Below are positions 28,644 to 39,174 of a stretch of DNA of 39,174 nt, piece by piece. Position 1 is the stretch's first letter. Every line of letters starts with the position of its first letter. The notes beneath the pieces are model-generated. The model ran no database searches. It had not been told where the DNA came from and was given only the letters and a program-made list of their open reading frames with translations. A program made the translations under genes and the position numbers. Source of the stretch: Spirosoma sp. (GTDB taxonomy: Bacteria > Bacteroidota > Bacteroidia > Cytophagales > Spirosomataceae); NCBI GenBank assembly GCA_014377625.1, contig JACMPG010000196.1, forward strand, positions 1 to 39,174, read 5' to 3'.

Positions 28644-30134
28644 CTACTCTTCCACATCGGTGTACGCAACCGGATCTTCGATTGAAACAGGCGGGTGTTC
28701 GTTGCCCGTTGCCGATCCGGGGTTGATGGTGATTTCGTAGCTGGCAAATTCAGGGTCGATGTACGATAGCTGGTCGCGAAGACGCTGGCGAAGGGCAACT
28801 GCCGGTTCAAGGCAGTACCGAACGTATTCGTCTGCCGTAACGAGCGACAGATCGGGGAACAGCAGCTTTAAGAATCCCGATGATAACTTCATAATGGCCC
28901 GCACGTCGCGCAGGTCTTTGGTGACGATCCAATGGTTGCGTTCCTCAACAAACTTATCATATTCAATCCGAAACCGTAGCGCATGGAACATCTCACCGAG
29001 GTAATCCGCTTTCAGCCCGATGCCTTTCGAGAGCGTATCGACGCTCAGGCGGGGCAGGTACCAGCCGGGCAAAATGCCGTGAATCCTGTCGAGCAGGGCC
29101 GATTCCTGCAAGAGCGTTGGGAGTTCGCCGAATAGGTTGTTGGGATTGACGGGTAACCCCTGCGGGCTGATTTGTACGTTGGCGATGAACATGGCCCCGG
29201 CGTCGGCAGAGACGGTAAACTTACCCTTCGAGTATTTGCCCTGTTCTAAGTAGCCTTTCAGCTTGGCGACGGTTTCGTCGGGACTACTGAACGACAGCGT
29301 TTGGGCTTCATCGAACACTACAATGTCGAACTGCGTAAAAAGCCCCGGCACCTTCGTATTTTCGTTGTAGAACAACACGGCGGGCGATACGGCCCCGCCT
29401 TCGATTAATCGCGAGTAGCGCGAAAACTGCCCGAACAGAAACGACTTTCCAGTGCCTTTGGGAGCCAGTTCAAACAGATTCACCCGTCGTTGTACAAACG
29501 GCAGCAGCCGGGTCAGTAACGCCTGGCGGGTTTTGTCGGTCGTATGGCCGTTCCCTTCGGCACTGTATCCCAGCGAGTTAATGAGTAGTTGTATCCATTC
29601 GTCGGTCGAAAATTCGCGTCGTTTCTCAATGTATTCGTCAACGTCAATAGCTGCGGCCTGTAACGGTTTGAACTCGCTGAGCCAGACCTCCCCGCCTTTG
29701 TCGTTGCGTCGGTAGCTGTAAATGGCCAGCCCCCACATACCACCTTTGAGCAAACGCGGGTACTTGGTCAGCAGATACTCTTCGACCTGCACCTTCTCGT
29801 TGCCCAGACTACCCGACTCCAGAAAGGTGCTGTCCTTTTTGAGGTCGACGCGGGGGCTGACGTATTCCAGCACCGACACCTGATCGCCATTGCGGAGCCG
29901 CTGTTTAAGGTCTTCTACGTCGTCTTTGCTGGGCATGAACTTCCGCACGAACGCGATGACCTGCTGTTTCACGGCTTCGTTCCAGTCACCGCCTTTTAGC
30001 TGCCGGTCAATGAGCCATTCGCCCACAAAAACGGGGATACTCTGATCGGCCAGGCCCGAGCCGCTGTATAAACTTTTGTCGATGGCCGACGCTTCAAATA
30101 CGTCGCTTACTTTCTGGCGGAGGGTGGCGTTCAT
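28644..30134 (-). CDS. brxL: BrxL, BREX AAA+ ATPase without the C-terminal Lon-like domain
   Basis: A 496-residue protein from the ATG at 30132-30134, 2 nt after the pglZ stop (a TTG two codons earlier would overlap). It follows the BrxL pattern: N-terminal DNA-associated region, KYPRLLKGGMWGLAIYSY, VDEYIEKRREFSTDEWIQLLINSLG, Walker A PKGTGKS at ~225-231, Walker B FDIVVFDEAQ with DE at 275-276, and LLDRIHGILPGWYLP. Type I BrxL proteins are ~680 residues because a Lon-protease-like domain follows; here the protein ends ~100 residues after the AAA+ core with an acidic tail. BrxL forms a ring on DNA and is needed for phage defence in type 1 systems. Confidence 0.85.
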   Translation of the reverse strand: MNATLRQKVSDVFEASAIDKSLYSGSGLADQSIPVFVGEWLIDRQLKGGDWNEAVKQQVIAFVRKFMPSKDDVEDLKQRLRNGDQVSVLEYVSPRVDLKKDSTFLESGSLGNEKVQVEEYLLTKYPRLLKGGMWGLAIYSYRRNDKGGEVWLSEFKPLQAAAIDVDEYIEKRREFSTDEWIQLLINSLGYSAEGNGHTTDKTRQALLTRLLPFVQRRVNLFELAPKGTGKSFLFGQFSRYSRLIEGGAVSPAVLFYNENTKVPGLFTQFDIVVFDEAQTLSFSSPDETVAKLKGYLEQGKYSKGKFTVSADAGAMFIANVQISPQGLPVNPNNLFGELPTLLQESALLDRIHGILPGWYLPRLSVDTLSKGIGLKADYLGEMFHALRFRIEYDKFVEERNHWIVTKDLRDVRAIMKLSSGFLKLLFPDLSLVTADEYVRYCLEPAVALRQRLRDQLSYIDPEFASYEITINPGSATGNEHPPVSIEDPVAYTDVEE

Positions 30135-30136
30135 AA

Positions 30137-32428
30137 TCAAAAATCAAAGTCAAAATCGTCCAGCTCGCTCGTCTGGATGGGTACGGTAAGCGTTGCTGAT
30201 TGGGCGGACTCTTCAGCGTTAGCGCGGAAGGTGATACTCACAGCGAGGGAAAGTTGTCCTTGTTGAGGCTTGTATTTCTGCGCAATTTTTACGCTTCCCG
30301 TCAACGTAGCGGAAGCGGTTGGCTCTATACGCATGGGAAGGGTAAACTGCGCGTTCTCATCTTCCACAATGCTCAGCGTTAGCAACTCAATGGCAAATGG
30401 ATTTGGGTTACGTACCTGAATGCCGAAGTCTTTGATGGTTTTGCCCTGCGGTAAGCCGTCGCTACTGCCGTAGTACGTCAGCACTAAAGGCTCTACGATA
30501 AAGATGGCCATTTCGGCCAATACTACCGGAACGATGGTTTCTTCGGGCGTCAGGCCGCCGTGCCGGTAGCCCCGGTCGTTGCTGCCGAAATACCGGTAGC
30601 CCCTCGCGGCAACGTAGGCCGTTGGGTTACGCGTGACGTCGGTTGTGAGGTGATACGTCTCGGTAGGGTCCAGGTGTACCGACAGCAGTTTGCCGTCCAG
30701 CTTTACGCTTCGTTCCCGGGGGTTGGCGGCTGCGGCTTCGGTGATCTTAGCATTTTTGATATTTTGCCCGTTTTGCAGGCATTTTGTGGCCCCATGATCG
30801 GTGGAGATGACGAGTTTGATTGGCCGATCGGTTTGCTGATTGATGAAAGCAGCTATTTTTCCGATTCGCTCGTTAAGTAGTTCGATTATTTTCTCGGTCC
30901 GGGGCGTATCAAACTTGGTATCGTCGCGGTGTAACATCTCGTCAATCTCCAGCCAGTGTAAGCAACAGAGGTCGGTGTCTAAACTTAATGTGTGCTGGAA
31001 CTGTCCTAAAGCAGCAGTAAATGCGGTTGTGTAGTTGGGAAATGATCGTTTCAACGCTTCTTCCCGGTTGGTCGTAAATGCCGACGAATCTGGCGTTAAG
31101 CCGTTAAGCAGAGCCGGAATGCCAACTTCGGTAATGGTTGGCAAGGGCGCAAAGGCGTAGCTCGTTGTTTGCCGAATTAGGCCGTGCGCCCGTAACGCCT
31201 GTTGAAGCAGCGGTACGAAAACCGCCGGGAAGCCATCGATAATGAGCCAGATAACCCGGCTATCGTTCGTTTCCAGGCACTCTTTAACCCGTCTCGATAC
31301 GCCGTAATTAGTTGATACGTCGTTATGCGCTAACAGACTGGCGAAGTTGGCAAACAGCCAGTCGCCATATTGTTCGGCCATTTGCGTTACCGGTTCAAGC
31401 TGTGCCAGGGTGGGTTCAGGCAAGCCATCTAACCAAAATTTGTGCGGGATGAAGCCAGAAACGGCCCATTGTTTCCAGGCGTTGGCCTGTTGAGAAAGTA
31501 GTAAGCCGTCGAGATTTGGCAACGGTGGTAACGTGGGCGGAACCCTTGTCTCCAACTGTTGCCGTAACTCTGGTGTAAGCAGGTCGGCGTATTTTTCCTC
31601 TATCTGTTGCCGTTGTTCGGCGGTCATCTTCTGAGTACTGGCCAGCAGAGCCTTCACTTCAGCCTTGTAGAGACCCGGCAGCAAGGTTTTTGGCGCGTCT
31701 TTGCTCAGCTTGAGTTGCTCTATTAACCGTTTCTCAAGCAGCATTTCCAATGCCGGGTCGTCGGCGAAGGCGCGTTTGGTCCAGCTTATGAGCGGGAGTA
31801 ATTCATTTAGCTTAATACCGTACTTTGATTTAAACGTATTCGTATGGCTGTGTTCCCAGTCGGTTAGCAGAACCGGAATGCCCGCCAGGTAAATGCCCTC
31901 GGCTAAAGCCCTGCAAAAGGCGGAGTCGCCTTCGCGCAGGGGTGTTAATACGTGGGGAAACGGTTTCAGATAGTCCCGCCAAAACTGGGCCGGATAGCGT
32001 TTTTGCAAGACCGGCAAATGCTGACCAACAAACTGAGCCAGCATAAGCAACGTCTCTGGTTTTGGCTCAACCTGTTCGGGTAGCTGCCCGAAGTAATGCC
32101 TGAACAATCCCGCGCGCGTTGGCTCGACAGCACTACCCAGCAGATTCAATTCCTGAATGTCAGCGTCGGTAAGTTCTGCCGGAATCCGCGCGGCTGGATG
32201 CTGCCGGGCCAGTTCTGAGCGGGGCGTTACGTCAGTTCGTTCCTCGTCGGGCAGGTCGTTAAACCAGAACAGATACGGCGTTTCGTACACCACAAAAGTG
32301 GGTGCTTTGGATACCGTACCCAGCCGATACGCCAGTATCTGCCGACGTGCTTCGACGTAGGCAGTCTCGCTATCTATGACCAGCGCACCATCGGGGGGCG
32401 ATAGCCGGAACGGGTCGAGTGTCAGCAT
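30137..32428 (-). CDS. pglZ: PglZ, BREX alkaline-phosphatase-superfamily protein
   Basis: A 763-residue protein, the hallmark of BREX. The PglZ domain occupies ~380-650: metal-binding Asp398 in VIWLIIDGFPA, the catalytic-Thr region PTITEVG (~430-436), and Asp544-His545 in KLVISTDHGATK, with a further His in RGYRHGGLTPEE. The N-terminal ~370 residues are helical and family-specific, and the C-terminal ~110 are beta-rich. Known PglZ proteins are metal-dependent phosphodiesterases/nucleases; in BREX they are needed for modification and restriction. Its ATG shares one base with the brxC stop (TGATG), so it is coupled. Confidence 0.93.
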   Translation of the reverse strand: MLTLDPFRLSPPDGALVIDSETAYVEARRQILAYRLGTVSKAPTFVVYETPYLFWFNDLPDEERTDVTPRSELARQHPAARIPAELTDADIQELNLLGSAVEPTRAGLFRHYFGQLPEQVEPKPETLLMLAQFVGQHLPVLQKRYPAQFWRDYLKPFPHVLTPLREGDSAFCRALAEGIYLAGIPVLLTDWEHSHTNTFKSKYGIKLNELLPLISWTKRAFADDPALEMLLEKRLIEQLKLSKDAPKTLLPGLYKAEVKALLASTQKMTAEQRQQIEEKYADLLTPELRQQLETRVPPTLPPLPNLDGLLLSQQANAWKQWAVSGFIPHKFWLDGLPEPTLAQLEPVTQMAEQYGDWLFANFASLLAHNDVSTNYGVSRRVKECLETNDSRVIWLIIDGFPAVFVPLLQQALRAHGLIRQTTSYAFAPLPTITEVGIPALLNGLTPDSSAFTTNREEALKRSFPNYTTAFTAALGQFQHTLSLDTDLCCLHWLEIDEMLHRDDTKFDTPRTEKIIELLNERIGKIAAFINQQTDRPIKLVISTDHGATKCLQNGQNIKNAKITEAAAANPRERSVKLDGKLLSVHLDPTETYHLTTDVTRNPTAYVAARGYRYFGSNDRGYRHGGLTPEETIVPVVLAEMAIFIVEPLVLTYYGSSDGLPQGKTIKDFGIQVRNPNPFAIELLTLSIVEDENAQFTLPMRIEPTASATLTGSVKIAQKYKPQQGQLSLAVSITFRANAEESAQSATLTVPIQTSELDDFDFDF

Positions 32429-35400
32429 CAGACGTGTCCGTTCGGCGATTGCTCGCCCAGAATATCGTTGACAATTTTCTGCATCTGGCTCGCGGATAGC
32501 CCGTAGTCCTGACGAGTTTTCAAAAGCACTTTGCTCAGTTCAGCTTTGGCGTCGGCCATTTTCCGGTCCTCCGGGAAACGCCATGCTTTCAGCGCGGCAA
32601 TCTGCTCTTTTGTGCTGCGAACAAACGTCAGTTGCTCCTCACGCGACCAGACATGATGGTCTTCGGGCAAGCCGAACTGCCCGGCCAGCGTTGGCACAAT
32701 AACGTCAAAGCCCGTGTTCTGGCGTACCTCCCGCAACAGCAGCCGGGGAATGTCGCCCAGGAGCAACGTAGCATCTTTGTCAGCTTTATTCTCAAAGGCT
32801 TCGGTATCTCTGAGTGCTGCGTAGAGCGTGTTTTGGTACTCGGCAACCGTGTCGTGCGGCTTTTTCTCCAGTATGCCGATAACCTCGTTTATCGGACGGC
32901 GGTACGTTTCTATTCGTGTTCTGATGCTTTCCAGTTTTCGCTCCATGACCAGCAGAGTTGCGTCGTCCATCGTTTGCAACGTTGGCAAGCCGTACTGCTT
33001 TGACAGTGTCTGGGTCATGAAGTCGTAGAAGTCGCTACCCGTCAGGTGCGTCATAAACTGCGCTTCGATGGTATTCATAGCCGACCATGATTTCGTGCGG
33101 GTACGTTCGGGCAGGCCGGGCATCCATTGATTGATTAGTCCCTGTTTTAGCGCGTCGATTGTCTCGGTGTTGCTCAGGCCGAATACATCGCCAACCTTAC
33201 CGAAATACTCCGCTTCGCTAACGGCGGGTTTCCAGTCATTTATTAGCTGATAGCAACGTTGGTACTCACTGGCAACAGCCCGGGTTTGCGACTCGGACCA
33301 ATCCTCCCATTCTGCTGGCAAATAGCTGGGTAGTTTTTCAACGTCCCGCCAGCGCGTTGGAATTACGACCAGAAATCGCTGTCTGGTCGATAAGCTTGAA
33401 TTGACAGTGTCAAGGAAAGAATGCACCGCTTTGTCGTCGAACAAATGCGATTTTACCTGGTTCGATAGCCTGGCGTACCAGTTGGCAAACAGTGTTGAAA
33501 AGGTTACTTCGTCAGGACACTCAGTTTCTGATACCTCAAATACGGCGCGGGCAATGGTACGATACGTGGGAATTGGCCCCTTTGTATATTCCTCTATCGT
33601 TTTTCGATACGCTTTGAATTCGTTGATGTACTGCGCCTGACAGACCATCAGGTTACCCGTCCAGTCTTTATCCGGGTTTTCGGTCAGATCGGAGAGGTAC
33701 ACCTCAAGCAGGTCTTTGCGGCCCGGTCCATTTCTGATGATGCCGATCCAGTCGTTTAGTTTTGGCTGTTCGTGAACGGCTCTTTTTTTGCCATCTCCCA
33801 GTTGCCTGAACCAGTCTTCCGTTATTTTGCGAATATCTTCTTTATTCACCAGTGTTTCGCCAAAGACTTGCTTTGCCATTAGTGCCAGCGTTTCCAACCG
33901 GAACTCGCGTTCTTTGCGGATCGGGAATTCTTTGAACTGCCGGATGAGGTCAACAATGCGAACACCATTATCGATGTCGTCTTCAAATTGCTCCTGCGTT
34001 AAATGCAGCAGACTGGCCGGTAGGGTGTCCAGCAGGAACTCTTTTGCTTCCTTTTCCTGATTGGCCCCTGACTTGCTCATTCGGTCGGTAAACAGGTAAA
34101 GCGACTCATAAAAAGTGACTTGAACTGCGTTGCTCTGTTGAATCAAAACACGTTGCAGAGGAGTGAGGAAGTTAACCCAACCAACCATCTGCTTTCCTAC
34201 CTCGGCAAACGAGCGGGCGGTCTGCTCCGTAAATAGTTCGCGCAATCGGTTCAGATAGCGTTTCTGGGGCCCCGACATGTCGATCCGGCGCAACCGGTAG
34301 TCCTGTGGTTTGCGCATGAGTGTCTCAAACAAGTCTATCGAAAGCGACTGGGCGAGGTTTCGCTTTGCGTCGCTCACAACCAACTCATCGCGGTTGGCAC
34401 GGGCGTAGGCCGTGAGCATAAACAGCGTTAGCGGACGAGACAAGCCGAAAGGTTTTTGCAACAGACTGGCCAGTGCCTCAGTTGGATCAATCGGGGCGGC
34501 TCCTTTTACTAACGCTTTGTCGAAGTGCCTGAAAATGGCCCCGGTAGCCGTACCCGGCTCGGGATTTTTCAGTTCACCAAAAACAGTACCATTCAGGGTT
34601 TTGCCGTCTTTAGTTAGTTTGAGATTGCGCAGGAAGTTTTCCAAAATGCGCTCTTGAGCCGACCTGTTCGTTCCGCTGCTCGACAGATGCAGTCCATCTT
34701 TGTCAGCATCCCACAATATATCCAACGCTTTCCGGCGATTGGGTTTCTCGGCATCCTTAAACCATAAAACTGATTCTCGAACAACCGGTACTGATCCCTT
34801 TGTGAAGAGGTCGTTAATTTTCGTGTTGAACCAATTCTGAAATCCAGTTGGACTTTTGAATTCCTGTGGACCTGGTTCGGGAGCGTAGAACCAAATCCAT
34901 TCGCTCGGTTCGTAAACTTTTTTGATTGCCGTTTTCAGGGAAGCTTCCGTCATGCGTACCTGTTCCCGTACGTTGTGCTGCTGGTTGGGATTCGCTCTGA
35001 CCTCTTCCCGGCTCAGGGTTGCTTCCAGTGCACAGTAGTCTATCGTTCGGGTCTGAACAGTTTCGAACATAGCTCCGTCTTTTGGGACCGCGTAAAACGT
35101 GTAGGGCTGCGCGGGGGACGAATACTGCAAAGCATCGACCATAGGCCGACGCTCAGCCTCGGTTGGTGCGAGCAGGTAAAACAGGAGTCCGTTGCCAACA
35201 TAATTGTCAGATAAGCCCCAGTAATACTTCGTCAGTTCCTCAACCGGGCCGTTCATATCAACAATACGCTGGGCAACAACGGGCCGCACGTACCGGTTGG
35301 CCCCGAACTCTTCTTCCTGATCGGTTAGTTCTATGTTCAGCCTGGGTTCCAGCCGTTGCCAAATAACCGCACAATCGGTTAGCGACAACCCGGCCAGCCT

Positions 35401-37086
35401 TTTCTTCTCCTCCTGAACAATCTTAGACACCGATCTGCCGCCCAACATTGGAAACTCATAAACCTCCGTTGTAGGGTTTCGCTCCAGCGACTCACCCGTA
35501 ACAAGGTCATCCAGCAGGTTATCGAAGTCGGTTCGTTTGGTTGTCGGCCAGTTCATGGCCCAGAATAGAATGTCTTTTTTAGGCTGCACTTTGCCGCCAA
35601 TGACGCTCAGCAAGAGCAGGTTCCCGTAAAGTTGCTTTGTTTCGGGCGCGTCATTCAATTTGTGCAGGGCTGTCCGGTACGAGTCAACCAAATTCACAAT
35701 GCTGTCTTTCTTAGCTTCGGCGAGGTTTTGCTCAAAAAATTTCAGTAATCGGTCGGGTGTAAAAAGGTTCAACTGGCCATCTGCCGTTTGAATTTCCGTT
35801 GCCTCCAGGAATGGCTCCAACGCGCCCGCCTTCGTTTCGTCTGGACTCAGGAAGTTGAACATCGAGCGCGTACTCTGCGCAAATTCGCCCGATAGAAGCG
35901 GTAGAAGATAAGCCGATAGCGGGTGTAAAGGATACAGGTTCCTGAGTACTTTCTCCGTAATCCAGCTCTCGGGCTTATCGGGATAGAGATTGTACTTTCT
36001 GGTTCGCAACCAGGCATCGGCCAGGTAATCGTATAAAGGCAGCGCGGCAAAACCCGCCGGGTCAGGATGCAGAAAGACCATTCCCAAAATCTCTTCTGCT
36101 TCCGATTCTGTCACTTCTAACAGGTGACTTTTAAACCGACCAACAACTTTCTTTACGTCCTGCTGCTGATCTTTTCGGAGCGTAGCCGGGTCCTGGTGGC
36201 TGGCGGCTACGAACAGGATATTTGCTCCTGTACCAGGTCGTTTTATGTCCTCAATGAAGTTCTGAACAGCCAAACCCCTGCCTTCTGGCGAATTAATGAG
36301 GTTTGAGAGCATCGTACCAAACTCATCGCACAGGATAACAATTCCCCGATACCCTTTGTCGGCTACATGCTTTGCTGTTTCGGCGTAGACGGTGTAGGCG
36401 TCGTCGGCATGACCTTCCGAAAATTCGCTGCTTATGACCTCTCTAAAATGTTGTTTAAACTGCCGGTAGGCCGATTCATCAGTATTGTTCAGGAGCCGTA
36501 TAAACTCATCGGGCGATTGACTTTGTAGCCGCTTCGTAAATAAACTGTAAAGGGAAGATTGCTGATTTTTCCAGTTTGTAAGTGTTTCGGCAGCCCGGCG
36601 GTAGTTAGTGGCCGGTACGTAGTCGATACCCTCCTTCAGCAAGGCTTCGTTCAGGCCCTGCACCAAGGCGTGCGTGAAGTCTGAATCAGAAGTATTTGGA
36701 ATAACGATCAGATACCGGGTGCCGTCGCCAACATAGTTGTCAAGCGTCTGGCCCAACTTGTCGTTATAAAAATCGTCTTTGCCGGTTATCGTCTGCCGGA
36801 ATGCATCAAGTACTGCCGGGCGGTTGTTGCCCAGCAAATGACCCAGCATTAGCAGCAGGTACGACTTGCCCGTACCGTATAATGCCGTAATCAGGTGTGC
36901 CTTGCGGTCGGTACTGGCGGGGAGTGTTTCGAGTATTTCCCGAAAAATCTTCCGCGAACTGGCATTAGGCAGATAGCCGTCTATTTTCTGGTCCCTTTCT
37001 GTGAGTTGGTACTGAAAATCGCGACCTACGTTAACTTCGGTTGAAAAAGCTTTAGAAAGCTGAACAAGGGTACTTAGCTTGGTCAT
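32428..37086 (-). CDS. brxC: BrxC/PglY-type large P-loop ATPase of the BREX system
   Basis: A 1552-residue protein with an ATPase module at the N-terminus: Walker A YGTGKS at ~70-75 and Walker B IVILCDEFG with D254/E255. The remaining ~1200 residues are mostly helical with no domain that I can name, which is typical of BrxC/PglY proteins (DUF499-like ATPases). It is longer than the ~1200 residues usual for type 1 BrxC. BrxC is thought to act as an ATP-driven scaffold that brings the other BREX proteins to DNA. It starts 5 nt after the 141-codon gene's stop and overlaps pglZ by one base. Confidence 0.88.
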   Translation of the reverse strand: MTKLSTLVQLSKAFSTEVNVGRDFQYQLTERDQKIDGYLPNASSRKIFREILETLPASTDRKAHLITALYGTGKSYLLLMLGHLLGNNRPAVLDAFRQTITGKDDFYNDKLGQTLDNYVGDGTRYLIVIPNTSDSDFTHALVQGLNEALLKEGIDYVPATNYRRAAETLTNWKNQQSSLYSLFTKRLQSQSPDEFIRLLNNTDESAYRQFKQHFREVISSEFSEGHADDAYTVYAETAKHVADKGYRGIVILCDEFGTMLSNLINSPEGRGLAVQNFIEDIKRPGTGANILFVAASHQDPATLRKDQQQDVKKVVGRFKSHLLEVTESEAEEILGMVFLHPDPAGFAALPLYDYLADAWLRTRKYNLYPDKPESWITEKVLRNLYPLHPLSAYLLPLLSGEFAQSTRSMFNFLSPDETKAGALEPFLEATEIQTADGQLNLFTPDRLLKFFEQNLAEAKKDSIVNLVDSYRTALHKLNDAPETKQLYGNLLLLSVIGGKVQPKKDILFWAMNWPTTKRTDFDNLLDDLVTGESLERNPTTEVYEFPMLGGRSVSKIVQEEKKRLAGLSLTDCAVIWQRLEPRLNIELTDQEEEFGANRYVRPVVAQRIVDMNGPVEELTKYYWGLSDNYVGNGLLFYLLAPTEAERRPMVDALQYSSPAQPYTFYAVPKDGAMFETVQTRTIDYCALEATLSREEVRANPNQQHNVREQVRMTEASLKTAIKKVYEPSEWIWFYAPEPGPQEFKSPTGFQNWFNTKINDLFTKGSVPVVRESVLWFKDAEKPNRRKALDILWDADKDGLHLSSSGTNRSAQERILENFLRNLKLTKDGKTLNGTVFGELKNPEPGTATGAIFRHFDKALVKGAAPIDPTEALASLLQKPFGLSRPLTLFMLTAYARANRDELVVSDAKRNLAQSLSIDLFETLMRKPQDYRLRRIDMSGPQKRYLNRLRELFTEQTARSFAEVGKQMVGWVNFLTPLQRVLIQQSNAVQVTFYESLYLFTDRMSKSGANQEKEAKEFLLDTLPASLLHLTQEQFEDDIDNGVRIVDLIRQFKEFPIRKEREFRLETLALMAKQVFGETLVNKEDIRKITEDWFRQLGDGKKRAVHEQPKLNDWIGIIRNGPGRKDLLEVYLSDLTENPDKDWTGNLMVCQAQYINEFKAYRKTIEEYTKGPIPTYRTIARAVFEVSETECPDEVTFSTLFANWYARLSNQVKSHLFDDKAVHSFLDTVNSSLSTRQRFLVVIPTRWRDVEKLPSYLPAEWEDWSESQTRAVASEYQRCYQLINDWKPAVSEAEYFGKVGDVFGLSNTETIDALKQGLINQWMPGLPERTRTKSWSAMNTIEAQFMTHLTGSDFYDFMTQTLSKQYGLPTLQTMDDATLLVMERKLESIRTRIETYRRPINEVIGILEKKPHDTVAEYQNTLYAALRDTEAFENKADKDATLLLGDIPRLLLREVRQNTGFDVIVPTLAGQFGLPEDHHVWSREEQLTFVRSTKEQIAALKAWRFPEDRKMADAKAELSKVLLKTRQDYGLSASQMQKIVNDILGEQSPNGHV

Positions 37087-37091
37087 CGGGT

Positions 37092-37517
37092 TTAAGAAGA
37101 TTCCTCCGACAAGTTAAGAGTATGACTCTGGGTCGCAGGGGTACGTTGGAAGATTTGATCAAACTTTTTGAAGATTTTTCTGGAATAAAGCAGAATTATA
37201 AGGGCCTGACGTGGTTCTTCAGCAGCCAGCTTAGGACCAAACAAGTCCAAAGTTCCCTCTGGCATGCGTGGTGCTATGAACAACTCTAAATTTAAAAGCA
37301 GTACTGCCTTGTTCCCACCTGCTTCCCTAATCTTTTTTAATAGCTCGTCGTCAGTGAGCAAAAGGTGCTTGTCATACAGGTCGGCGCAATCAACAACTGT
37401 CGCGTTGGTCTGCCTGAGGTTCGTCACAACCTGACCGTATAGTTCATATGCCAGTACTATACCTGTTCGTTTTTTACCGTCAGACTGTATATGCTGAACA
37501 AACTCAGAGATTCTCAT
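37092..37517 (-). CDS. Small BREX-operon protein of unknown function
   Basis: A 141-residue protein overlapping the DUF4007-like gene by 14 nt and ending 5 nt before brxC. It has alternating strands and helices (TGIVLAYELYGQVVTNLRQ, KAVLLLNLELFIAPRMPEGTLDLFG, RQALIILLYSRKIFKKFDQIF) suggesting an alpha/beta fold; the pattern of a buried strand followed by an acidic residue resembles a degenerate P-loop or BrxF/BrxB-like partner, but no Walker A motif is present. Position and length recall the small accessory proteins BrxB/BrxF that sit beside BrxC in other BREX types. This comparison is by position, not by clear homology. Confidence 0.75.
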   Translation of the reverse strand: MRISEFVQHIQSDGKKRTGIVLAYELYGQVVTNLRQTNATVVDCADLYDKHLLLTDDELLKKIREAGGNKAVLLLNLELFIAPRMPEGTLDLFGPKLAAEEPRQALIILLYSRKIFKKFDQIFQRTPATQSHTLNLSEESS

Positions 37518-38289
37518 TGTAATACCGTTCTACAAGTGATAGGGGAGTTCCATCGTATAGGTAGTTAATCATGTTCAAATCTGCCGATTGCACACGCTTA
37601 GCGAGTCCCAACTCTTGAAGTGAACTCAACTGCATCTCAAGTGATCTTGAATCGTATCCAAAGAATTTTCCAATATTACCAGGCTCCTGCATCAACTCGT
37701 TGATAGAAATAGATACCCGCCCATGCCTGTTGTCATATAAAATATAAGCGACTAGTAGCGGATGGACGTTATATGGATCAGATCGGTAAAGGCGGTTATT
37801 ATGTAGTGCGAACAAATTTAGGGACTGAAAATTATCAGATTTTCGTTCAATCAATGCGTTTATGGTTCTGTTCAGTATGCCAGAGATATAGTCTTTTTCG
37901 TAGTTTGTACTGAAATCGTTGTTAAATGCCCAAGTTTCGAATTCATTAATTAATTGTACTCTTTCGGCACCACTTGCCATTTCATTCATAATGTAGTGCA
38001 AAATTGTATTTCTGTTTTTTAACGACCAATTGTATAGACAAATCCATTTCGAAAAATATTCATTTAATTTCTTGTCCTTGGATCGAATAACGTACCCTAA
38101 CTCAGAAATTTCTCTAGAACTGCTAATAAGCCCAAAATCTGTCAGATACTCTTTTATTCCCCTGACCTTTGCATAGTTTAGTCCAGATTCTGCTTGAAGA
38201 CTTTGTTCATCTTGTTCAATTAGAACCAGTATCTTAGTTATTTCCCTGATATCAACTCCAAATTTCTGGTAATTTCTCAGTGTTTGCAT
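37504..38289 (-). CDS. DUF4007-like protein of the BREX type 4 operon
   Basis: A 261-residue protein from the ATG at 38287-38289, 8 nt after the brxP stop; a start ten codons earlier would overlap brxP. The N-terminal region looks like a winged-helix module (AESGLNYAKVRGIKEYLTDFGLI, then ISELGYVI) and the following segment LNEYFSKWICLYNWSLKNRNT fits the DUF4007 pattern of G..I..D..L.E..T.WLLHY. DUF4007 genes are found beside PAPS-reductase genes in DNA phosphorothioation and BREX type 4 loci. A DNA-binding or adaptor role is inferred. The gene is distinctly AT-rich. Confidence 0.68.
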   Translation of the reverse strand: MQTLRNYQKFGVDIREITKILVLIEQDEQSLQAESGLNYAKVRGIKEYLTDFGLISSSREISELGYVIRSKDKKLNEYFSKWICLYNWSLKNRNTILHYIMNEMASGAERVQLINEFETWAFNNDFSTNYEKDYISGILNRTINALIERKSDNFQSLNLFALHNNRLYRSDPYNVHPLLVAYILYDNRHGRVSISINELMQEPGNIGKFFGYDSRSLEMQLSSLQELGLAKRVQSADLNMINYLYDGTPLSLVERYYNENL

Positions 38290-38297
38290 AGATTTGT

Positions 38298-39038
38298 TTA
38301 TATAAAACAAGCAGCACAACCCTCTTCACCTTCGTTTAAGTCATGAATTTTGTACATCAATAGATCAGAATTTTCCTCACGTGACTCAGCAACCTTTTGT
38401 TGCTTTTGGAGAAAATCTCTCTTTATTTGATTTACACGATCAGGTTGTGTCAGATCACCTAATGATTCCTTTTCATTCCAAGTATATCCTTCCTTCTCAA
38501 ACTCAGCCGCTTTTTTATAGAGTTCTGGATGCTGCTCGTACAACCAAACCCATTCAATTTTCTGCTGAAAGAAGCAAAAATAGCATCCAGAGCGACTACG
38601 GGCGTATTTGCCCACTTTGCCATCTACTTCAAAGTCAATTTCCTCGTAGTATTTAGGCACACCCACGCCACTGCCTCGAAGGATAGAAAATATGTCTTCT
38701 TTAATTGAAACTGTCTCATCATTTACAACCGGGTACGATTGGAGATGTGAGATAGGATACTGGGTAGTCTTCAGGAACCTGAAAACTAATTGGTTGAAAA
38801 GTTTTGTATTTGCATTAAGCAGTAAGTCAAGTTTCCTGTCAGATGAAAACTTCAGACTTATTACTTGATTCAATATTTCCTCGAATCCGCTGTCCGGTTC
38901 ACTGACTATCTCGGCTAAGTATGATAACAGTAAAGGGATATTCCCATTCGATAAAACCTTAACAATTACATCCTTGCTCCAGATATTTTTTCTGAATGGA
39001 AATATAGACTGGATACTTGGCTTCTTAGAGATATATAA
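38298..39038 (-). pseudogene. brxP: BrxP, PAPS-reductase-family protein, 5'-truncated by an insertion sequence
   Basis: About 246 codons of open frame remain, running without a stop from the IS boundary to TAA at 38298. The C-terminal signature is clear: HLQSYPVV, an EDIFSILRGSGVGVPKYYEE stretch, then RSRSGCYFCFFQQKIEWVWL with paired Cys, and a final GCAACFI. These are features of the PAPS-reductase/DndC-related proteins of BREX type 4. The N-terminal ATP-pyrophosphatase half with its SGGKDS loop is missing: upstream sequence switches to the left end of an IS3-family element at ~39039. A TTG at 38873 could initiate a 191-residue remnant, but it would lack the nucleotide site. Confidence 0.78.
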
Positions 39039-39174
39039 TGCTCCCCAAAACTTGGACAGGTAGGCTAACTTGAATCAATTAGTTTCGACCTACAAAATGT
39101 CCAAAAATGACCAAGTCAACTCGGCGCGTCCACGACGCAACCTTCAAGACCAAAGTGGTCCTCGAAGCACTCAA
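39039..39174 (+). mobile_element. Left end of an IS3-family insertion sequence, partial
   Basis: The proposed terminus begins TGCTCCCCAAAACTTGGACA at 39039, a 5'-TG end with a CCCCAAAACTTGGACAG core like the terminal repeats of IS3-family elements. It is followed after ~68 bp by the start of orfA. The right end and any target duplication lie outside the window. A hairpin is formed by 39052-39064 and 39089-39104 just ahead of the start codon. The exact boundary is inferred and could shift by a few bases. Confidence 0.7.
39107..39174 (+). CDS. IS3-family transposase OrfA, first 22 codons
   Basis: The ATG at 39107-39109 opens a frame reading MTKSTRRVHDATFKTKVVLE, then Ala-Leu, and runs off the window. 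The pattern RRxxxxxFKxKVxLEAL is the conserved start of the HTH of IS3-family OrfA (HTH_Tnp_1). In complete elements OrfA is joined to the DDE-containing OrfB by a -1 frameshift; that part is not visible. An ATG at 39097 is in another frame. Confidence 0.8.
   Translation, partial: MTKSTRRVHDATFKTKVVLEAL

What the first reader, a model, noticed from the sequence alone, without database searches (positions are those of the whole stretch)
28644..39038. BREX type 4-like operon that lacks a methyltransferase and uses a sulfur-chemistry protein
Six adjoining minus-strand genes carry BREX hallmarks: PglZ, BrxC and BrxL, with a PAPS-reductase-family gene and a DUF4007-like gene at the front. The published six-type BREX classification puts brxP, brxC, pglZ and brxL in type 4, the group I know least experimental work on. 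PAPS-reductase-family proteins such as DndC take part in DNA phosphorothioation, so a sulfur-based mark could replace PglX adenine methylation. That is inference; nothing here shows the mark itself.
Basis: partly seen in the sequence, partly recalled or inferred. Interest (0 to 1): 0.8.

Follow-up and report, generated by a model that had tools for sequence, protein, structure and literature searches.

The report
Sulfur-marking genes joined to BREX operon
A bacterial anti-virus gene cluster seems to pair a complete set of genes that mark the cell's own DNA with sulfur with a BREX-type blocking machine, in one operon found in several bacteria, although the copy in this genome is broken by a jumping gene.

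Summary
The six minus-strand genes are real, but the window holds only half of the locus. An insertion sequence cuts the "PAPS-reductase" gene at about 39,040; its other half lies on contig C280 of the same genome, behind intact sspB and sspC. The inferred locus reads sspB-sspC-sspD(::IS)-DUF4007b-X-brxC-pglZ-brxL, with no methyltransferase among the genes scanned. It is not textbook BREX type 4: PglZ, BrxC and the sulfur protein miss the models that a canonical type-4 locus hits, and there are two large ATPases and two DUF4007 proteins. The order recurs in Hymenobacter, Mucilaginibacter, an Arcicella MAG, a Chloroflexi MAG and, much diverged, another genome of the Hymenobacter genus. Two relatives have SspA beside it, one DndB. 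Best reading: SspBCD writes a phosphorothioate self-mark and a separate BREX module blocks DNA without it; related modules carry a methyltransferase instead. Phosphorothioate in type-4 BREX is already published; a complete Ssp writer beside a separate BREX module I found described nowhere I could read. No mark or activity was tested. In this genome sspD is broken, so the copy probably does not work.

The parts
28644..30140 (-). brxL, Lon-like AAA+ protein, 498 aa, short form
   Evidence: TIGR02688 427 bits, cut-off 329; solved BrxL 8emc E 6.5e-62; GTGKS and DEAQ motifs
30137..32428 (-). pglZ, 763 aa, divergent from all curated PglZ types
   Evidence: NCBIfam PglZ_4 45 bits (cut-off 140), PglZ_3 44 bits (cut-off 250); D398, D544, H545, H623 invariant in 8 of 8 rows
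32428..37086 (-). brxC, large AAA+ ATPase, 1552 aa, closer to SspC than to BrxC models
   Evidence: PADLOC SspC 160 bits, BrxC 45 bits; YGTGKS and DEFG motifs
37092..37517 (-). X, 141-aa protein in the position of BrxB/BrxF; inferred inactive AAA/STAND-like fold
   Evidence: alignment of 8; AlphaFold pLDDT 82, five strands; only weak Foldseek matches, best E 7.6e-3, many of them AAA+/ORC; no Walker A in 7 of 7
37504..38319 (-). DUF4007b, second SspB-fold protein, probable DNA-binding subunit of the restriction module
   Evidence: PF13182 38 bits, cut-off 27; model matches SspB crystal structure 6juf, E 1e-9, TM 0.78
38298..39038 (-). sspD, C-terminal 246 codons (with GCYFC and GCAAC motifs); the N-terminal half is on contig C280
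   Evidence: PADLOC SspD 127 bits; matches residues 131-374 of the intact homologue L020 at 63% identity; the C280 half matches from residue 1 to about 133, with a partly IS-coded tail to 142
39040..39174 (+). end of a multi-copy insertion sequence that interrupts sspD (family not tested)
   Evidence: same end on contigs C129, C261, C132 at 99-100%; the opposite IS end abuts the sspD N-half on C280 and recurs on C279

Best explanation
The window holds the 3' part of an eight-gene phage-defence operon made of two modules. Writer: SspB, SspC and SspD, with sulfur from a cysteine desulfurase (encoded beside some copies, presumably a housekeeping one elsewhere), put a phosphorothioate on host DNA at a sequence motif. 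Reader and effector: DUF4007b (SspB-fold DNA binder), X (BrxB-like inactive ATPase fold), BrxC (ATPase), PglZ (metal-dependent nuclease by homology) and BrxL find incoming DNA without the mark and stop its replication, as BREX does. The operon thus carries two DUF4007 + large-ATPase pairs, one for writing and one for reading, where the canonical type-4 loci read here have one. Shown: gene content, gene order, recurrence, conserved motifs. Inferred: that the two modules work together, that phosphorothioate is made, that it protects. In this genome sspD is interrupted by an IS, so this copy is probably a natural knockout.
For: C280 carries SspB (DUF4007 222 bits; solved SspB 6juf E 4e-29), SspC (1304 bits) and the SspD N-half (169 bits). 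sspC-sspD-DUF4007b-X-brxC-pglZ lie on one strand in this order in 5 of 7 loci fetched with BrxC as query (L031, L033, L034, L036, L037), with sspB in the four whose contig reaches it; L035 has sspC/sspD on the other strand past brxL; L032 starts inside DUF4007b and says nothing. Gaps in those five run from -56 to +63 bases. A separate SspD search found a further, very divergent locus of the same order, L118, gaps -40 to +42. SspA beside L035 and L037; DndB directly after brxL in L031. Pairwise identities of SspB and SspC track those of BrxC (r 0.96 over 10 pairs, 0.86 over 21). The three composite SspCs in the tree group together (94/99). A five-gene BREX module of the same order with a methyltransferase upstream exists in L064 and plasmid AP024153.1, so the upstream part looks like an exchangeable writer. 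SspBCD with IscS makes phosphorothioate in known systems (PMC8092258, passages).
Against: No chemistry or phage data. The C280-window join is inferred across an unassembled IS in a draft genome (85% complete, 378 contigs). sspD is broken here. In L034 the pglZ frame stops after 259 codons, 110 bases before the contig end, so that copy may be broken too. In L118 sspC is in two ORFs and the DUF4007-position protein matches SspB only weakly (37 bits). In L035 the Ssp genes lie on the other strand with a GmrSD-type gene and a kinase gene, so they could serve another effector. SspD identities track BrxC only moderately (r 0.64). Six other SspBCD loci have no BREX hit in the stretch read, so SspBCD does not need this module. 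Short PglZ motifs as I spelled them are absent in L036 (all three) and L037 (one). The X to BrxB link is weak: Foldseek E 7.6e-3 at best, hhalign to the small P-loop-type protein of L064/L096 not significant. Deep branches of the PglZ tree are unresolved; the Ssp-linked rows as one group get 48/39.
Confidence: 0.6

Rival explanations
1. Canonical BREX type 4 in a divergent form: SspD plus DUF4007b are a split BrxP, BrxC does the writing as in type 4, and SspB/SspC are accessory or relics.
For: DUF4007b of L020 matches the C-terminal part of the BrxP model (39 bits, residues 524-761), that of L037 weakly (21 bits); gene content beyond SspB/SspC equals the type-4 list in PMC12839542 section 34; L118 BrxC groups with type-4 BrxC at 94/93, but long branches meet there.
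Against: The type-4 PglZ model and the BrxC and BrxP models that fit canonical L060 score 45, 21 and 22-27 bits here against 149, 2595 and 950 there. The window's DUF4007b gave no BrxP hit. SspC keeps its Walker motifs in this genome, L031, L033 and L037.
Confidence: 0.2
2. Two independent systems, an Ssp system and a BREX-like system, that merely sit together in a defence island.
For: Each module occurs without the other elsewhere; in L035 they are on opposite strands.
Against: Besides the own locus, six loci (L031, L033, L034, L036, L037, L118) in four genera or MAGs have the same order with overlapping or close genes, found by two different queries; SspD occurs in only 11 of 247 genomes sampled from the class, so repeated adjacency by chance is unlikely. 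No SspE or SspFGH match among 10 selected flanking proteins from five relative loci.
Confidence: 0.12
3. The effector module is activated by phosphorothioate, as SspE is, instead of attacking DNA that lacks it.
For: SspE needs phosphorothioate for activity and is harmless without it, whereas SspFGH damages unmarked host DNA (PMC8092258, passages). A host that lives with broken sspD fits an effector that needs the mark.
Against: Type 1 BREX brxX mutants are viable and lose both mark and protection (PMC6326788, passages), so the broken copy does not discriminate. Related modules carry a methyltransferase, which fits a self-mark.
Confidence: 0.2
4. In this genome the locus is a decaying remnant with no current function (compatible with the best explanation for intact copies).
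For: IS inside sspD.
Against: The other seven ORFs are open and about as long as in the relatives, with conserved motifs where checked.
Confidence: 0.5

Closest known systems
BREX type 4 (brxP-brxC-pglZ-brxL), phosphorothioate-based
   Same: PAPS-reductase-family protein, DUF4007, BrxC/SspC-like ATPase, PglZ, BrxL, no methyltransferase found; sulfur mark expected
   Different: The two canonical loci read (L060, L061) have one BrxP of 786 aa and one large ATPase. Here SspD is separate, there are two DUF4007 proteins and two ATPases plus X, and the type-4 PglZ cut-off is not met
SspBCD with SspE or SspFGH (phosphorothioate defence)
   Same: SspB, SspC and SspD in the same order; SspA beside some copies
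   Different: The neighbour module is a BREX-like five-gene set; no SspE or SspFGH match among 10 selected flanking proteins
Methyltransferase-bearing relative (L064; plasmid pIAD-21, AP024153.1)
   Same: DUF4007 - small protein - BrxC - PglZ - BrxL in the same order
   Different: An Eco57I/N6-type methyltransferase stands where SspBCD does; its small protein has weak AAA matches, X has none; PglZ of L064 is only 19% identical to the window's
BREX type 1 and type 3
   Same: PglZ, BrxC, a BrxB/BrxF-like small ATPase fold (X, inferred); BrxL as in type 1
   Different: No PglX found; the type-3 cut-off and that of the one type-1 PglZ model hit (type B) are not reached

Membership tests
BREX type 4 | BrxP: PAPS reductase, usually fused to DUF4007 | tested here: not met
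   SspD is a separate gene; BrxP model 22-27 bits on the N-half and three intact relatives against 950 on canonical L060
BREX type 4 | Type-4 PglZ (NCBIfam NF033445, cut-off 140 bits) | tested here: not met
   45 bits in the window, 37 in L037, none in L118; canonical L060 149, L061 139
BREX type 4 | BrxC of the kind in canonical loci (PADLOC PDLC02480) | tested here: not met
   21 bits in the window against 2595 in L060; that this model stands for type 4 is my inference from L060
BREX type 4 | BrxL, short form | tested here: met
   TIGR02688 427 bits, cut-off 329
BREX type 4 | No PglX methyltransferase | tested here: met
   None among the six window genes and three C280 genes scanned; the rest of the window, the two other C280 ORFs and most flanks of relatives were not scanned
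Ssp phosphorothioate system | SspB, SspC and SspD | tested here: met
   307, 1304 and 169/127 bits (SspD halves) in this genome; intact SspD 302-344 bits in the three relatives scanned
Ssp phosphorothioate system | Known partner SspE or SspFGH | tested here: inconclusive
   No match among 10 selected flanking proteins from five relative loci in PADLOC; the own genome was not searched for them
Ssp phosphorothioate system | Phosphorothioate in DNA | not testable with these tools
   Needs LC-MS or PT-seq
BREX (superfamily) | PglZ with conserved putative metal-site residues and BrxC with Walker motifs | tested here: met
   D398, D544, H545, H623 invariant in 8 of 8 PglZ rows (role recalled); Walker A and DEFG in 7 of 7 BrxC
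BREX type 1 / type 3 | PglX methyltransferase and a PglZ over the type's cut-off | tested here: not met
   No methyltransferase among the genes scanned; PglZ_3 44 bits against 250, PglZ_1_B 24 against 400

The most novel reading that the evidence does not exclude
The five-gene BREX module is a portable restriction chassis that takes interchangeable writers: a methyltransferase in some lineages and a complete SspBCD phosphorothioate writer in others. In the Ssp form, writing and reading are split between two DUF4007-ATPase pairs, so marking should not need any BREX protein, unlike type 1, where brxB, brxC and pglZ are needed for the mark. SspD plus most of DUF4007b, a poorly conserved (50-73% DNA identity against 71-84% in sspB/sspC) and low-GC stretch, may be a swappable specificity cassette.
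Probability: 0.45. Interest if true: 0.7.

Novelty: new variant of a known kind. Interest (0 to 1): 0.58.

Why it matters
How BREX tells self from foreign DNA and which subunits write or restrict is hard to separate, because in type 1 most subunits are needed for both. It would also link two defence families, Ssp and BREX, through a natural swap of the DNA mark.

Tried and rejected
A methyltransferase beyond the IS: not found, C280 carries sspC and sspB. Canonical type 4: rejected on model scores, although the trees do not settle ancestry. In one search the composite PglZ with L064 formed one group (94/92) next to type 3; with L096 and L118 added those deep joins were no longer supported. Long branches (L118, L036, L064, L043, L089) make them unsafe. 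X as a BrxF homologue: hhalign against the small protein of L064/L096 gave 0.4%, so the link rests on position, fold type and missing Walker A.

Viral contigs: 15 pattern hits, no relative by tblastn. Plasmids: 3 and 2 records with distant partial matches. Rarity: BrxC profile 1 of 395 genomes of the class, the own one (E up to 1e-40); PglZ 4 of 291 in the order, own included; 3 of 150 in the family of G258. These counts miss divergent forms: the genome of L118 was in the samples and gave no match there. SspD neighbourhoods: all 10 other genomes with a match were read: L118 has the BREX genes, L119 ends at the contig edge, L120 shows sspD without an sspB or sspC hit, L126 is a short distant relative without them, and six have SspBCD and no BREX hit. 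The specificity cassette rests on one pair of loci and a GC dip, so it stays a lead. Yuan et al. (BREX type 4 phosphorothioate, bioRxiv 2024) is not held; what I say of it comes from citing papers. The supplements of PMC12839542 could not be opened, so this arrangement may be among its 457 type-4 taxa.

Recalled, from no call: PglZ metal-site roles, the history of the BREX types.

Full report
Observation. BrxL is clear (TIGR02688 427 bits, cut-off 329). PglZ is recognisable but under every curated cut-off. BrxC matches SspC models better than BrxC models (160 against 45 bits). The 141-aa ORF, called X here, has no family. DUF4007 passes its Pfam cut-off. The gene at the front, 38298-39038, is an SspD fragment (127 bits) that stops at an insertion sequence at about 39,040.

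The other half. The window is contig C56 of a 378-contig genome. A PAPS-reductase search of that genome found, among five places, a fragment near the edge of contig C280. C280 begins with what appears to be the opposite end of the same insertion sequence, then carries, in the matching orientation, the N-terminal half of sspD, a full sspC and a full sspB, and then two other ORFs. The N-half matches intact SspD of L020 from residue 1 to about 133 (the alignment runs to 142, its tail partly IS-coded) and the window half from residue 131 to the end. Both IS ends occur on other contigs, which explains the assembly break. The join is an inference, but a strong one. The locus is sspB-sspC-sspD(::IS)-DUF4007b-X-brxC-pglZ-brxL.

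Relatives. A scan with the BrxC alignment gave seven loci. Five have sspC-sspD-DUF4007b-X-brxC-pglZ on one strand in the same order: Hymenobacter nivis (L031), H. negativus (L033) and Mucilaginibacter myungsuensis (L037) with all eight genes; an Arcicella MAG (L034) with sspB to pglZ, whose pglZ frame stops after 259 codons close to the contig end; and a Chloroflexi MAG (L036) from a cut sspC to brxL, whose 176-aa ORF in the X position had no BLAST hit and aligns at 15% identity. Flavobacterium sp. LHD-80 (L035) has SspA and the five BREX-module genes on one strand, and sspD and sspC on the other strand after brxL, beside a GmrSD-type gene and a kinase gene. H. caeli (L032) begins inside DUF4007b and is uninformative. 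Neighbouring genes in the five are -56 to +63 bases apart. L033 has an extra 288-aa gene between sspD and DUF4007b (GIY-YIG-like by eye; a 17-bit PADLOC hit, no Pfam hit). L031 has DndB directly after brxL (Pfam 113 bits), and L037 has SspA next to brxL on the other strand.

Independent check. A search for SspD in 247 genomes of the class found 11 with a match, the own one included. The surroundings of all 10 others were read. One, L118 (same genus label as the three Hymenobacter genomes), has SspB, SspC as two ORFs, SspD, a protein with a weak SspB match, a 179-aa ORF, BrxC, PglZ and BrxL in the same order, with BrxC and PglZ only 23-25% identical over parts. Six have SspBCD and no BREX hit, L119 ends at the contig edge, L120 showed sspD without an sspB or sspC hit, and L126 is a short distant relative. 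So SspBCD has several kinds of neighbour, and the BREX module is one of them.

Is it type 4? Of 296 genomes of the phylum, one had a PglZ over the type-4 cut-off (L060, 150 bits, 149) and one just missed it (L061, 139). Both loci have one BrxP of 786 aa, one BrxC, PglZ and BrxL. The L060 proteins score 950 bits for BrxP and 2595 for BrxC in PADLOC. The window's PglZ and BrxC score 45 and 21 bits, and SspD (N-half and three relatives) 22-27 bits for BrxP. In trees, the window PglZ groups with other Bacteroidota Ssp-linked copies (5 rows, 100/100), and BrxC likewise (6 rows, 100/100). Deeper relations to type 3, type 4 and the methyltransferase form are not resolved, and L118 BrxC falls by type 4 with long branches that make this unsafe. 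SspC forms its own group (6 rows, 100/100), and the three composite SspCs included sit together in it (94/99).

A methyltransferase counterpart. L064 (at a contig edge) and plasmid AP024153.1 (L096) have methyltransferase - DUF4007 - small protein - BrxC - PglZ - BrxL. Profile comparison of DUF4007b with theirs gives 99.1%; X against their small protein gives nothing. The X model (pLDDT 82) has five strands in an alpha/beta layout; its Foldseek matches are weak, many of them AAA+ and ORC proteins (best E 7.6e-3); Walker A is missing in 7 of 7. PMC12839542 describes BrxB and BrxF as inactive STAND ATPases (passages), so X is most simply their counterpart. The DUF4007b model matches the SspB crystal structure (E 1e-9, TM 0.78).

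Mechanism. SspBCD with IscS makes phosphorothioate in known systems (PMC8092258, passages). PglZ of type 1 BREX is a metal-dependent nuclease whose activity matters for defence, not for methylation (PMC12205998, passages). In type 1, loss of the writer abolishes both marking and defence, loss of BrxL defence only (PMC6326788, passages). I therefore read the operon as writer plus BREX reader/effector, with the mark protecting the host. Whether the mark protects or activates is open. The break in sspD tells little: type 1 BREX and SspE systems tolerate loss of the writer, whereas SspFGH harms unmarked cells.

Known or new. Phosphorothioate in type-4 BREX is in print (PMC12839542, sections 14 and 34 and passages; PMC11931770 and PMC12707154, passages; Yuan et al., cited there, not held). 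In the library held here, no paper has both SspBCD and PglZ, and the listings showed me no described operon of SspBCD with a BREX module; of the hits I read only the passages named, and supplements could not be opened. I therefore call it a new variant of a known kind.

Co-evolution and cassette. Pairwise identities of SspB, SspC and SspD against BrxC correlate at r 0.96 (10 pairs), 0.86 (21) and 0.64 (21); for this genome only the SspD C-half was used, and SspC of L035 and L036 is partial. Shared species history alone could give this. Between L031 and L033, sspD and most of DUF4007b fall to 50-73% DNA identity, against 71-84% in sspB/sspC and 72-82% in brxL; brxC (58-82%) and pglZ (59-79%) vary too. 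In this genome GC is 36-44% in sspD, DUF4007b and X and 51-55% in the other genes. This hints at an exchanged specificity cassette but is thin.

Noticed in passing
L018:356-1798 (own genome, contig C302): A DndC gene (PADLOC 523 bits) lies beside a moaA-like gene (by eye) near the contig edge, so the host may also carry a Dnd phosphorothioation system.
   Followed up: partly
L033:7903-8769 (H. negativus): A 288-aa gene with a GIY-YIG-like C-terminal part by eye is inserted between sspD and DUF4007b; Pfam gave no family.
   Followed up: partly
L033:18853-21177 (H. negativus): A gene with a DpdF match (PADLOC 52 bits) lies beside the operon.
   Followed up: no
L117, L121-L125: Six other Bacteroidota SspBCD loci have different neighbour sets (GHKL-like, PLD-like and SMC-like proteins by eye; not scanned against families): possible further SspBCD partners.
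   Followed up: no
L096:26-1732 (plasmid AP024153.1): A gene annotated rpoD (Pfam finds only Sigma70 region 4 in 568 aa) heads the methyltransferase form of the module.
   Followed up: no
L035:13313-15487: A protein kinase gene and a GmrSD N-terminal-domain gene sit between brxL and sspD in Flavobacterium.
   Followed up: partly
window 37001-39000: GC falls to 37-41% here against 44-59% in the other 1-kb steps of the window, matching sspD, DUF4007b and X.
   Followed up: partly
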